Part shown: piece by piece, positions 5,402 through 55,421 of the stretch
Numbering within the stretch: the first letter of the stretch is position 1
How the letters are laid out: each line of letters begins with the position of its first letter
Source of the DNA: Chloroflexota bacterium
GTDB lineage: Bacteria > Chloroflexota > Anaerolineae > Caldilineales > Caldilineaceae
Direction of reading: 5' to 3'
DNA: 64,000 bases
Assembly (NCBI GenBank): GCA_003577005.1
Contig: QEUW01000001.1
Coordinates: 1-64,000 of the forward strand
Notes under the pieces: model-generated
Database searches by the model: none
Told to the model about the DNA's origin: nothing
What the model saw: only the letters and a program-made list of their open reading frames with translations
Position numbers and translations under genes: made by a program

Positions 5402-5499
5402 AAAAGCGGAACACAGAGAGCACGGAGTTTGCACGGAGGACACAGAGGCGATTCTCGGTGTGCTCTATGTCTTCTCTGTGCCCTCTGTGTTCCGCTTTT
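5402..5499. repeat. CACAGAG-word hairpin, copy 1
   Basis: Outer arms of 17 bp (AAAAGCGGAACACAGAG, 5402-5418, and its exact complement 5483-5499) enclose further words ACACAGAG, GCACGGAG, CACGGAGG and ACACAGAGG on the left and their complements (TCTCTGTG, CCTCTGTG) on the right. Each arm is a string of roughly 9-base words. Related elements occur at 33919-34014 and 63848-63985. It lies upstream of maeB and downstream of the CBM9-like gene. Confidence 0.8.
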
Positions 5500-5506
5500 G
5501 AATCAT

Positions 5507-5597
5507 CCACAGATTACACAGGTTTCACAGATTTTTGTTCAGGGAGCGGAGGCAAAGCGCCGTCTGCGCCAATCCGCCTAATCCGCCTAATCTGCGG
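5507..5597. repeat. Nonamer-word imperfect hairpin
   Basis: The left arm 5507-5533 is, read as its complement, AATCTGTGA/AACCTGTGT/AATCTGTGG; the right arm 5571-5597 is AATCCGCCT/AATCCGCCT/AATCTGCGG. Both arms are thus three 9-base words and match at 18 of 27 positions as an inverted repeat. It directly follows the CACAGAG hairpin. Confidence 0.65.
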
Positions 5598-5608
5598 TCT
5601 ACCGCCTT

Positions 5609-7129
5609 TCAATTGGAGAGAATCAGCGTGCCCCATTCATCGGGCCGGTTGTAGGTCGTACGGCTGGCGGACGTGGAGAGCACCGTCTGCTGGGCCGGTG
5701 TATTCTGATCGTTGTCGTTGAGGCTGAGCATAAAACCAAAGACACGTCGATCGAGGTCCCGCTCGGTGACTTCAAACAGACGCCACGGCAGCAAGAACTC
5801 AGCGATATAGCCTTCCCCGTCGGGTGTCAAAGCGCCCGCTGGGGTAAAGGCGCCTTCTTGCACCGGGGGTAGCCAGCGATAGCCGCGTAGCTCGTTGCGG
5901 CCAGGACCAAAGGCGATACCGACCTGGTAATCATCGTCGTTGGCCTGCGGGTTGTCAAAATCGGCGGCCAGGTGGCGGTCAAAATGAATCTCGATACCAT
6001 CACCCTGCCACTGGTCGGTGCCGGCCGGGCCGCTACGGTAGCGGTCGTCGGCAACGCGCACGGCGAAGTAAAGCCCCTCGTTTGACCAGGCCACCTGGAA
6101 AACGCCGGAGAGATCCTGCAGCCCACTATAATTCTCGGCGCCTTGGATCACATGGGCGACCGGCGCCCAACTGCCCGGCCAATCGTTCAAGTCGGCATCC
6201 AACCGGGGGGTCGCGCGCTGGGCGACAAAGCGGCCATTGGCCTCCGGGCGCATCGCCACAGGCGTCTGCTCGGCGGCCGGTGGCATGGCTGTATCGGGCA
6301 ACGAGCCCCCAAAGGGTTGCCCAAATGGCTGCCACTGGCCGGTATTCAAGACCACCAGTTCGATAGGACCCCAGCCGGGTTCGCGTGCCGTATTGTATAG
6401 ATTATCCTGGCAGAACTCGACGGTGCTACTCTGGACCAAAAAGCCGCGCTCAAAGGGCTGGATGAGCGCGCAGAAGCCTCTTTCCTCGCTCCTGGCCCAA
6501 CCCAGCCGTTGGAAGAGGTCCTCACGCGTGGCCCAGGCATAGCCAAAGCCGCGGATGGGCGCCTGAAGCCCCGGCGGCGGGTCGCCGCGCGAGGGGATCT
6601 CCTGGCCCTCCCACCCTTGTTCGATGTGCCACCAGGCGCCGTCGCCAAAGAAAGCATATGCCTGGTTGTTATCGCTACGCCAGAACATAGCCCCCCGTTC
6701 AAACGGCTCCCACGCCGACCAGTAGATTCCAGCTTCAGCAGTAGCGCACCCCAGCGCCGCCGGGTCGTAGCCGCCGGCCAGTTGATCCGCGACCGGTTGC
6801 GGGCAGATTACGGTGGGCGACGGCGTGGGCGTGGCCGTTTCGGTAGGGGTGGGTGAAGGCGTCTCCTCGGGTGTGCCGACGGTGGCAGTCAGAGGCACGG
6901 TCGGCGTTTCCAACAAGGCTACTGCGGTTGCCAGGGGTGGAGTGGCGGTGGGATTGGGCGGCGATGCCGCACGGCCAAATCGGCTGGCAAAGGTGCCAAG
7001 CGCCAGACCAACTGAAAAGGCGACCAATCCAACCGCAACCAACAGCGAGATCCAGGTGGTCGTCGTAAAGATGCGCCGTGGTGGTTGCGCCTCTTGTTCA
7101 AAAATATCGTAATCGTCTGGTTGTCTCAT
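5609..7129 (-). CDS. Membrane-anchored protein with CBM9-like C-terminal domain
   Basis: 506 residues. After an acidic cytoplasmic N-terminus (MRQPDDYDIFEQEAQPPRR) comes one membrane helix (about 26-48), then a Pro/Thr linker (about 50-105), a central domain with Cys residues and many aromatic positions, and a C-terminal domain from about residue 330. That last part (LDADLNDWPGSW, GLYFAVRVADD, GDGIEIHFDRH, EFLLPWRLFEV) resembles family-9 carbohydrate-binding (CBM9-like/DOMON) domains, so it probably binds sugars or polysaccharide outside the cell. The ATG at 7129 overlaps the stop codon of the upstream small membrane protein by 4 bases (ATGA), which suggests translational coupling. The function of the central domain is not known to me. 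Confidence 0.72.
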   Translation of the reverse strand: MRQPDDYDIFEQEAQPPRRIFTTTTWISLLVAVGLVAFSVGLALGTFASRFGRAASPPNPTATPPLATAVALLETPTVPLTATVGTPEETPSPTPTETATPTPSPTVICPQPVADQLAGGYDPAALGCATAEAGIYWSAWEPFERGAMFWRSDNNQAYAFFGDGAWWHIEQGWEGQEIPSRGDPPPGLQAPIRGFGYAWATREDLFQRLGWARSEERGFCALIQPFERGFLVQSSTVEFCQDNLYNTAREPGWGPIELVVLNTGQWQPFGQPFGGSLPDTAMPPAAEQTPVAMRPEANGRFVAQRATPRLDADLNDWPGSWAPVAHVIQGAENYSGLQDLSGVFQVAWSNEGLYFAVRVADDRYRSGPAGTDQWQGDGIEIHFDRHLAADFDNPQANDDDYQVGIAFGPGRNELRGYRWLPPVQEGAFTPAGALTPDGEGYIAEFLLPWRLFEVTERDLDRRVFGFMLSLNDNDQNTPAQQTVLSTSASRTTYNRPDEWGTLILSN

Positions 7130-7584
7130 TCTAACAATTGCAATATAAACTGAAAAGCCGTTTCTGAACGTTCGAGCAGCAAGAGCGCCGCCAGCACCAG
7201 CAGCAACAACAGCGCAAGCCACAATGAAGAGCCGATTGCCTGGCCCCGCGCCTGGAACCGGGCCACCCGCTCGCGCAACACCTGCGGCGGCGTCGGCGCC
7301 AACAGATGGACGGTAGACTCGTTGTCCGTCCGGTCGGGGCGCAGCTCTACCGGACGACCCACCCAATCGCTACAGAGAGAACTATGCATCATGCGGATCA
7401 GTTCCTGGCGTTGAGCGGAATTGAGCGCCAGATGCTTGCCAGGTAGGCCCTCAAAGTGCAAGACCGGGGTCAACTCCTCCAGCCCTTGAAACGAGATGGC
7501 GCGAATGACGGTGCGCTGGGGTGCATCCCCCAGGTCAACGGATTGCAGGCGATACCGTTTATCCACAACCGTCGAACGGGACAT
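7126..7584 (-). CDS. Small membrane protein, unknown function, coupled to the CBM9-like protein
   Basis: 152 residues from ATG 7584 (MSRSTVVDKRYRLQSVDLGD); the frame is open further upstream, but the first 47 codons look non-coding. The N-terminal two thirds is soluble with a mixed charged pattern (VGRPVELRPDRTDNESTVHLL), and one strong Leu-rich membrane helix lies at about 120-140. I do not recognise a family. The stop codon overlaps the start of the CBM9-like gene, so the two products are probably made together and may form a membrane complex. Confidence 0.55.
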   Translation of the reverse strand: MSRSTVVDKRYRLQSVDLGDAPQRTVIRAISFQGLEELTPVLHFEGLPGKHLALNSAQRQELIRMMHSSLCSDWVGRPVELRPDRTDNESTVHLLAPTPPQVLRERVARFQARGQAIGSSLWLALLLLLVLAALLLLERSETAFQFILQLLE

Positions 7585-54230: not shown

Positions 54231-54243
54231 GAAAACACCTTAT

Positions 54244-54327
54244 CATTGGTCCTCGGTCACTGGCCATTCGTCATTGGTAGCCGGAGATGTTGCGCCGAAA
54301 CCAATGACCAATGACAAATGACCAATG
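54244..54327. repeat. Heptamer-word hairpin between opp permease genes
   Basis: Left: CATTGGT-CCTCGGT-CACTGGC-CATTCGT-CATTGG (54244-54277), five 7-base words. Right: CCAATGA-CCAATGA-CAAATGA-CCAATG (54301-54327), four 7-base words complementary to them. It starts 14 bases upstream of the OppC start codon (54230) and so is in its leader. Confidence 0.85.
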
Positions 54328-54331
54328 CAAC

Positions 54332-55345
54332 TTATCCGCGCTCATAGGTGATGCGCGGGTCGATAAACGGGTAGAGCAGATCCAGAATCAGTACGGCGGT
54401 CGCCGTACAGACGATCAACAAGAAGACGATGCCCTGCATCAGGGTGTAATCATTCGTAACGATGCCCTGGTAGAGCAGATACCCCACGCCCGGATAGGCG
54501 AAGATATACTCCACCAATGTCGAACCGCCCACAATGCCGCCCAGGCTGAGCGCCAGCGCCGTCACCTGGGGCAAGACCGAATTGCGCACCCCGTAGAGCC
54601 AGAAGACGCGCCGCGGACGTAACCCTTTGGCATCGGCCAGGATCATGTAATCCTCGCCTTCGTTGGTGATCATCATACCACGCATACCCAATGCCCAAAA
54701 GCCCATACTCGCCAATACAACCGAGAGCGCCGGTAGCGTGCCATGATGGATGACGCTCCCAATAAAAGACCAGTTGAACCCGCGCGGCAGGCTACTGTCA
54801 AAAGCGCCCGACGGTGTCGGAAAGAGACGTAATCCAAAGACAAACATGTAGATCAGCAGGATGCCCAACATAAAGTAGGGGATCGAAGTAAAGACCATGC
54901 TGACCGGCAATAATTGTTTGATCCATTCAGGTGTACGGCGCCACCCCAAGATGGCGCCAATCGTATTGCCGATGATGAATGAGAGAATGACCGCCACTGT
55001 GAGCAGCCCCACCGTCCACGGTAGGGCGCGGGCGATCATATCATCCACACGACTGGGAAACGAGGCCAGCGAGTAGCCCAGATCAAGGGTAAGCACGTTG
55101 CCCAAATACCGGCCATATTGGATGTACCAGGGGTCATCTAGCCCAAAGCGAGCACGCCATCTCTCAATGATCTGAGCCGCGTTCTCTACATAGCCAGACT
55201 GCGCCGTCATCCGCGTGATCATGGCAGTCACCGGGTCACCGGGCGCCAGGCGAGGGATGATAAACATAAGCGTCGCTCCCAGCCAAATCGTAAAGACAAA
55301 CATGCCGAGGCGACGGAAGATATAACCGGGTGTAATTCCACGCAT
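54332..55345 (-). CDS. Peptide ABC importer permease (OppB/DppB type)
   Basis: 337 residues. N-terminal RRLGMFVFTIWLGATLMFII and RLAPGDPVTAMITRM fit the family, and the docking loop LADAKGLRPRRVFWLYGVRN is the DppB form (usually RAKGLxxxxV). About six helices. Gene two of the opp operon, between binding protein and OppC genes, with word repeats on both sides. Confidence 0.94.
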   Translation of the reverse strand: MRGITPGYIFRRLGMFVFTIWLGATLMFIIPRLAPGDPVTAMITRMTAQSGYVENAAQIIERWRARFGLDDPWYIQYGRYLGNVLTLDLGYSLASFPSRVDDMIARALPWTVGLLTVAVILSFIIGNTIGAILGWRRTPEWIKQLLPVSMVFTSIPYFMLGILLIYMFVFGLRLFPTPSGAFDSSLPRGFNWSFIGSVIHHGTLPALSVVLASMGFWALGMRGMMITNEGEDYMILADAKGLRPRRVFWLYGVRNSVLPQVTALALSLGGIVGGSTLVEYIFAYPGVGYLLYQGIVTNDYTLMQGIVFLLIVCTATAVLILDLLYPFIDPRITYERG

Positions 55346-55370
55346 GATTTATAGACTGCGAGATCAGGAG

Positions 55371-55421
55371 ACTGGAGATTAGAGACCGGAGATTGGCTGC
55401 CTCCAGTCTCTGATCTCCAGT
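55371..55421. repeat. GGAGATTAGAGA-word hairpin
   Basis: ACTGGAGATTAGAGACCGGAG (shown in two parts: ACTGGAGATTA and GAGACCGGAG, 55371-55391) pairs with 55401-55421 at 19 of 21 positions. Words are 7-8 bases (GGAGACT, GGAGATTA, GAGACC). It lies between the binding-protein stop and the OppB start codon. Confidence 0.75.

What the first reader, a model, noticed from the sequence alone, without database searches (positions are those of the whole stretch)
5402..55421. A population of locus-specific 'stuttering' hairpins built from tandem 7-9 nt words
At least nine gaps (5507, 10614, 28958, 31552, 33919, 42345, 43539, 54244, 55371) hold an imperfect inverted repeat whose two arms are each a run of three to six words of constant length, 7, 8 or 9 bases. 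The word differs at most loci, so these are not copies of one mobile element. Differences between arms fall word by word, and many are transitions. Heptanucleotide STRR repeats are known in heterocystous cyanobacteria, but as direct arrays; the paired-arm form, with equal word length in both arms and attachment to stop codons, is not something I know to be described. A locus-specific generator (template switching during replication, or an RNA-templated process) would explain it.
Basis: partly seen in the sequence, partly recalled or inferred. Interest (0 to 1): 0.85.

Follow-up and report, generated by a model that had tools for sequence, protein, structure and literature searches.

The report
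Mirrored seven-letter repeats between bacterial genes
In this bacterium and its relatives, gaps between neighbouring genes often hold a hairpin whose two arms are built from a repeated, usually seven-letter word; the words belong to shared families, the hairpins come and go quickly, and the pattern extends a kind of repeat already described in other bacteria.

Summary
The window (Chloroflexota, Caldilineaceae-like) has 9 inverted repeats with periodic arms; shuffles give none. About 1.6 Mb sampled from this and related genomes gave 55 such stems: best period 7 in 37, co-directional gene gaps in 41, usually close to the stop codon and ending shortly before the next start. Several words are dispersed families, not locus-specific, and two recur in other phyla. 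Yet arms mirror each other in word order beyond a word-permutation null, so something local couples them. G:U and A:C mismatches on the transcribed strand are equal (65:68): no sign of RNA-level selection. In 11 orthologous gaps compared, 5 hairpins are absent in the relative, 2 conserved, 3 replaced by an inverted repeat of other words, 1 one-armed. Inverted heptamer pairs near stop codons are already in print for Xanthomonas. Best reading: the known class of 7-nt (and 9-nt) intergenic tandem repeats in a many-word form, made by slippage and fold-back DNA copying and tolerated in intercistronic spacers. A new variant of a known kind.

The parts
5402..5499 (-). Hairpin, CACAGAG words (about 9 nt), between co-directional genes; dispersed family in G001
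5508..5534 (.).
10623..10725 (-). Irregular hairpin of GGAGATT-like words, conserved in G001
26497..26622 (-). Hairpin of AACGGATT words (best period 13), shared with G181 and with many G001 places, absent from the orthologous G001 gap
28958..29024 (+). Hairpin of 8-nt GAGATTGA words inside the queA reading frame; absent in G001
31559..31617 (-). Hairpin of about 6-nt TCCTCG words, C-rich arm first on both strands; G001 has an array resembling one arm only
33919..34014 (-). Hairpin with CACAGAG words starting next to a stop codon; conserved in G001 at about 84% identity; dispersed in G001
40293..42347 (+). prkA, upstream neighbour
   Evidence: PF08298/PF06798
42345..42405 (+). Hairpin of GTGATGC words; the prkA stop codon lies in the first word
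42444..43541 (+). yeaH-like gene (DUF444)
   Evidence: PF04285
43539..43639 (+). Hairpin of AATTGTC/AATGGTC words at the yeaH stop codon
43651..45156 (+). spoVR, downstream neighbour
   Evidence: PF04293
54255..54327 (-). Hairpin of GGTCATT words between transporter genes
55368..55424 (-). Hairpin of GGAGATT/GGAGACT words
63904..63971 (.). Hairpin of CACAGAG words; 63848-63988 has many matches in G001

Best explanation
These belong to the broad class of intergenic heptanucleotide (and 9-nt) tandem repeats, in a many-word form. A word reaches a spacer from the genome's pool of dispersed families or arises there. It multiplies by replication slippage, mostly in steps of seven. A 3' end then folds back or switches template and copies the array in reverse, giving a hairpin whose second arm mirrors the order of word variants in the first. 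Later slippage within each arm and ordinary mutation make the arms drift. Hairpins survive mainly where they do little harm, between the stop codon and the Shine-Dalgarno of co-directional genes, where a foldable insert keeps the two genes close in the message. Shown: periodicity, placement, dispersed families, mirroring, fast turnover, no RNA wobble bias. Inferred: slippage, fold-back copying, passive tolerance. The 9-nt CACAGAG family may instead spread as whole hairpins.
For: Non-coding direct arrays peak at period 7 (96; period 9, 36; 19 or fewer at 5, 6, 8, 10, 11) and 35 of the 96 have an inverted partner within 150 nt against 2 of 96 for a reversed control. Word order is mirrored beyond permutation: summed stem score 971 against 810 (SD 16), mirrored variant columns 112 against 75 (SD 6.5), 50 hairpins. 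G:U 65, A:C 68 on the transcribed strand, 41 hairpins. Clean insertion between stop and Shine-Dalgarno: 89-nt gap in G181 against 18 nt in G196. Two Roseiflexus differ in copy number and their two arms carry different word variants.
Against: Two of five families (GTAGTC .85/.84, CACAGAG .76/.76) show no excess of arm identity within hairpins, as copying of whole hairpins would give. Words recurring in other phyla are not explained by local slippage. The G-rich-arm-first rule (48 against 6) has no proven cause and is broken in 3 of 6 viral-contig stems printed. No intermediate was observed.
Confidence: 0.5

Rival explanations
1. Selected RNA hairpins: the spacer needs a structure after the stop codon, to protect the upstream message or to couple translation, and any repeated word that pairs will serve, so a hairpin stays while words change.
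For: 41 of 55 in co-directional gaps; 23 of 38 begin within -6 to +15 nt of the stop and 30 of 38 end 5-40 nt before the start. The prkA-yeaH gap has periodic stems in 5 of 10 testable Chloroflexota loci, the window included, against 11 of 68 other gaps. Three of 11 orthologous gaps keep an inverted repeat with changed words.
Against: No G:U excess (65 against 68). Five of 11 orthologous gaps lack the hairpin. One lies inside queA. prkA-yeaH is periodic in 0 of 11 testable loci outside Chloroflexota.
Confidence: 0.22
2. Mobile or gene-converted element families: each word family is a miniature element copied whole to new spacers by an unidentified activity; words differ because many families coexist.
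For: Dispersed copies; CACAGAG hairpins as alike between copies as between arms; presence or absence between relatives; words in several phyla and in viral contigs.
Against: Arms more alike within than between hairpins in three families; no exact flanking direct repeat of 4-8 nt in 0 of 55; Y1-transposase genes occur in 6 of 6 genomes but only 1 of 20 such loci has a periodic hairpin nearby.
Confidence: 0.22
3. Artefact or ordinary terminators: chance inverted repeats, assembly errors or intrinsic terminators with periodic stems.
For: 4 of 41 co-directional hairpins have TTTT within 12 nt after the stem.
Against: No periodic stems in shuffles; the same kind in separately assembled genomes; 37 of 41 lack the T-run.
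Confidence: 0.03

Closest known systems
GGGAATC / GGGGA(C/T)T heptamer repeats of Xanthomonas and Nostoc (Rehm et al. 2015, PMC4692102; passages and two sections read)
   Same: Heptamer arrays mainly between genes, near or overlapping stop codons, G-rich on the coding strand after an ORF and on the non-coding strand before one; 70 cases in Xcc and 75 in Xac of two arrays in convergent orientation; transcribed in Xac; length and sequence vary between species.
   Different: One G-tract word per genome, studied as a quadruplex former; here several words per genome, 1 of 55 left arms has four GGG tracts, and mirroring of word order is measured.
STRR heptanucleotide repeats of cyanobacteria (Mazel et al. 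1990, recalled, not read)
   Same: Tandem heptanucleotides, several families, intergenic.
   Different: Known to me as direct arrays; host phylum; inverted pairing not checked here.
TAACTGA direct repeats of Beggiatoaceae (MacGregor 2015, PMC4679880; abstract and outline seen)
   Same: One heptamer as 169 sets in one genome; odd distribution over distant phyla.
   Different: Direct repeats, one indirect repeat among the sets; mostly just upstream of start codons; one word.
Tandem heptanucleotide elements of Geobacter metallireducens (PMC2700814; passages seen)
   Same: Four or five tandem heptamers at many loci.
   Different: Described there as regulatory elements or regulator binding sites; consensus words GGACCGG and MTYCTGA.
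REP / GTAG- and CGTC-tagged palindromes (PMC3733652; passages seen) and REPINs (PMC3116915; search listing only)
   Same: Short extragenic palindromes in many copies.
   Different: Single palindromes of 20-40 bp with a tetranucleotide tag, many linked to RAYT genes; not arrays of a 7-nt word.

Membership tests
Intergenic heptanucleotide short tandem repeats (STRR / long SSR class) | Tandem unit of 7 nt over-represented among lengths | tested here: met
   96 arrays at period 7 against 36 at 9 and 1-19 at 5, 6, 8, 10, 11; 2 in one shuffle
Intergenic heptanucleotide short tandem repeats (STRR / long SSR class) | Mainly between genes | tested here: met
   3 of 55 periodic stems in coding sequence; the array count was limited to non-coding DNA beforehand
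Intergenic heptanucleotide short tandem repeats (STRR / long SSR class) | Dispersed in many copies | tested here: met
Xanthomonas-type inverted heptamer pairs | Convergent inverted arrays near stop codons with G-rich strand on the coding side | tested here: met
Xanthomonas-type inverted heptamer pairs | G-quadruplex-forming word with GGG tracts | tested here: not met
   1 of 55 left arms has four GGG tracts, 10 of 55 have any
REP / RAYT elements | Linked to a Y1 (RAYT-type) transposase locus | tested here: not met
   1 of 20 Y1 loci has a periodic hairpin nearby; several have ordinary aperiodic palindromes
REP / RAYT elements | GTAG or CGTC tag at one end | not tested
   some words contain GTAG or CGTC; tag position was not examined
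Intrinsic terminator | T-run directly after the stem | tested here: not met
   4 of 41 have TTTT within 12 nt
MITE or insertion-type element | Target-site duplication | tested here: not met
   0 of 55 with an exact 4-8 nt direct repeat immediately outside the detected stem; stem ends may not be element ends
MITE or insertion-type element | Mobilised by a transposase in trans | not testable with these tools
   needs an experiment
Described RNA families | Rfam match | tested here: not met
   0 matches at gathering score in the window

The most novel reading that the evidence does not exclude
Bacteria of several phyla share a process that writes 7-nt tandem words and copies them in mirror order into the spacer between two co-directional genes, with a grammar (G-rich words after stops, C-rich words before starts), drawing on a lexicon that partly recurs across phyla. 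If a dedicated enzyme or a specific replication intermediate does the writing, it would be an unrecognised source of intercistronic structure.
Probability: 0.17. Interest if true: 0.8.

Novelty: new variant of a known kind. Interest (0 to 1): 0.5.

Why it matters
Heptamer repeats in bacteria have long been noted; Rehm et al. (sections read) state that a functional role remained to be found. Genomes with many words at once let the mechanism be tested: word order across arms separates copying from dispersal, and G:U against A:C counts separate RNA-level from DNA-level maintenance. Fast gain and loss between stop codon and Shine-Dalgarno also shows how operon spacers can be reshaped without moving genes.

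Tried and rejected
RNA-level selection: no G:U excess. RAYT-driven REPs: Y1 loci not associated. Intrinsic terminators: 4 of 41 with a T-run. Rfam: nothing at gathering score. prkA-yeaH as a hairpin hotspot: suggestive only, 5 of 10 against 11 of 68, 0 of 11 outside Chloroflexota (the 68 control gaps had 100 shuffles each, the test gaps 200; five of the 15 Chloroflexota loci had no testable gap: L006, L009, L018, L052 by gap length or lack of one, and L003 had no stem and is not in the 10). Planctomycete L020 has a hairpin of GTGGCTA words there by eye which the ungapped test did not flag, and L001's hairpin there missed the threshold in the 90-nt gap (p 0.015) but not in a 71-nt core (p 0.003); its periodicity is not significant. 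Three-frame stop cassettes: left arms carry more stop triplets than shuffles (67 against 47, SD 4.8), but 14 of 38 have none. Polarity as a universal rule: of six viral-contig stems printed for GGTCATT, three have the C-rich arm first. In those contigs 7 of 27 GGTCATT arrays but only 1 of 14 GTGATGC arrays overlap a stem, and that one is not periodic. Plasmids: no match for 42300-42460. Reversed-pattern controls were not always empty: 3 of 50 genomes for GGTCATT, G181 for GTGATGC, G003 for GGACGAA. Rows dropped: arrays mostly inside predicted genes, with N, or with fewer than three kinds of base; stems containing N; gaps under 50 or over 400 nt; hairpins of period 11 or 13 and too short ones (50 of 55 used). 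The gene caller is my own codon-usage script. Contigs of G001 and G181 were chosen partly because they had BLAST hits to the window, so densities are not genome averages. Orthologous gaps were sought for 8 of the 11 window hairpins (none for 54255, 55368, 63904) and compared for 3 of the 18 co-directional G181 hairpins. Literature searches for the paired many-word form listed nothing closer than Rehm et al.; the library lacks most subscription papers.
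Full report
What is there. The window is Chloroflexota: its YeaH protein is 92% identical to that of a Caldilineaceae MAG (L001, genome handle G001). The window's own genome is not held. An ungapped stem detector found 18 inverted repeats of score 16 or more, 9 of them with periodic arms by a test that permutes paired columns; dinucleotide shuffles of the window gave none. 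The nine are at 5402, 26497, 28958, 31559, 42347, 43539, 54255, 55368 and 63904.

How general it is. The same tests on the window, 716 kb of G001, 374 kb of G181, 400 kb of G003 and 40 kb of two Roseiflexus loci gave 55 periodic stems. Best period is 7 in 37 of 55, against 10 of 101 stems that are not periodic. By class, 41 lie between co-directional genes, 5 between convergent genes, 3 in coding sequence, 5 at contig edges or unplaced, and 1 between divergent genes. Without the Roseiflexus loci, 39 hairpins fall in 977 co-directional gene pairs and 1 in 127 divergent pairs; the depletion is significant per gap base (p 8e-5) but not per pair (p 0.08). Non-coding direct arrays peak at period 7 (96 arrays), with 36 at period 9 and 1 to 19 at 5, 6, 8, 10 and 11, against 2 to 4 per period in one shuffle; 35 of the 96 have an inverted partner within 150 nt, against 2 of 96 for a reversed, uncomplemented control. 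Loci of other phyla had few: 1 periodic stem in 162 kb of Planctomycetota loci, 6 in 683 kb of Myxococcota/Deltaproteobacteria and others (several of them GC-rich codon-like repeats), 0 in 131 kb of Calditrichota/KSB1.

Anatomy. Among 38 co-directional hairpins of period 6-9, 23 begin between -6 and +15 nt of the stop codon and 30 end 5-40 nt before the next start; for 55 aperiodic stems the figures are 14 and 15. The first arm is the G-rich one in 48 hairpins and the C-rich one in 6; for aperiodic stems 63 and 32. Unpaired period-7 arrays follow the same rule: near a stop G-rich on the sense strand (20 against 8), near a start C-rich (14 against 4; p 0.002). Rehm et al. report the same placement and strand preference for Xanthomonas and Nostoc.

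Are the words locus-specific? Mostly not. BLAST of window pieces shows many places in G001 for the segments at 26497, 33919, 43539, 5402 and about 63848-63988, and in G181 for 42344-42374 (40 of 208-327 candidates scored per genome, so counts are low). GTAGTCG in tandem has 80 exact hits, some overlapping, in G181 and 1 in G013, none in the other 48 of 50 genomes. GTCATTGGTCATTGGTC was found in 6 of 50 genomes: two Chloroflexota, three Planctomycetota and one labelled Nitrospinae; the reversed control hit 3 other genomes. GTGATGC in tandem was found in 6 of 50: five Chloroflexota and one Calditrichota. GGACGAA was found in 2 of 50. Tandem GTGATGC and GGTCATT also occur in 14 and 27 viral-contig stretches, against 3 for one scrambled word.

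Is anything local? Yes. If arms were independent strings of words from one family, permuting words within one arm should not lower the pairing. It does: summed stem score 971 against 810 (SD 16, maximum 856 of 100 permutations), and variant columns mirrored in register 112 against 75 (SD 6.5, maximum 91), over 50 hairpins. Arm identity within hairpins against left-arm identity between hairpins of a family, the latter maximised over registers: GCGTGAT .92/.81 (8 hairpins), GGACGA .86/.78 (6), GTGAAT .82/.68 (3), GTAGTC .85/.84 (6), CACAGAG .76/.76 (10). Three families show local coupling and two do not.

RNA or DNA? Transition mismatches on the transcribed strand are G:U or A:C; RNA pairing tolerates the first. 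The counts are 65 and 68 over 41 hairpins, and 65 and 53 in 55 aperiodic stems. There is no sign of selection on RNA pairing; young hairpins under weak selection could still escape this test.

Orthologous gaps. Window against G001 (about 80% identical in most of the shared genes, 71-84% by stretch): 5402 and 26497 have no significant stem in G001; 28958 is absent from the queA of G001; 10614 and 33919 are conserved homologues by reading; 31552 has an array resembling only one arm, with no stem; 43539 is a periodic hairpin in both with words changed; 42345 has in G001 a shorter stem of GTGAGTGA-type words whose periodicity is not significant. G181 against G196 (about 72%): the GTAGTCA hairpin between a sigma-70 gene and a CofD gene has in G196 a 13-nt inverted repeat of other words (p 0.014 over the gap, 0.004 over its core; periodicity not significant); the 15473 hairpin is absent, G196 having an 18-nt spacer with the same stop codon and a Shine-Dalgarno; the 12222 hairpin is absent. 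Of 11 gaps: 5 absent, 2 conserved, 3 with an inverted repeat of changed words (one periodic in both genomes), 1 one-armed. Two Roseiflexus at 88% identity keep the prkA-yeaH hairpin with the same word family but different copy number, and their two arms carry different word variants. The prkA-yeaH gap has periodic stems in 5 of 10 testable Chloroflexota loci, the window included, against 11 of 68 other gaps in those loci and 0 of 11 outside the phylum.

What it works like and what it is. It works like slippage plus inverted copying, with tolerance in spacers; that is inference. It is a member of the class of intergenic heptanucleotide repeats by unit length, location and dispersal, and shares the inverted arrangement with the Xanthomonas repeats, but not their quadruplex-forming word. 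It is not a REP/RAYT family on present evidence, not an intrinsic terminator, and matches no Rfam family.

Limits. MAGs are fragmentary; the gene caller is my own; the contig sample is partly biased toward hits; the detector allows no gaps and misses some plain cases. No experiment bears on function.

Noticed in passing
22842-22875, about 26665-26728, 37293-37340: A dispersed REP-like palindrome (AGGTGCAACGCACTT and close forms) at three places; the 26665-26728 copy matches several G001 contigs at 82-92% identity.
   Followed up: partly
8624-8677, 48152-48199, 50629-50723, 57695-57764: Near-perfect inverted repeats of 18-21 nt without word periodicity, a separate class from the periodic hairpins.
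   Followed up: no
L234 about 10820-10900: In G001 the gap orthologous to 10614 holds an extra insert with palindromic ends (GTAGCGGCAGTTTCC ... GGAAACCGCCGCTAC) that the window lacks.
   Followed up: no
5508-5534 and 5567-5592: Two direct arrays (CACAGATTT and CGCCTAATC words, period 9) next to the 5402 hairpin.
   Followed up: no
L296 1421-1490: A G181 hairpin that changes from GGACGGA-type to GGAAGGC-type words within an arm, with the change mirrored at the same place in the other arm.
   Followed up: partly
L404 5016-5094 and L403 13896-13980: G196 has its own periodic hairpins (GACGACG/GGTGGTC and GGACCAA words); the L404 one lies in a gap where its relative G181 has no periodic stem.
   Followed up: partly
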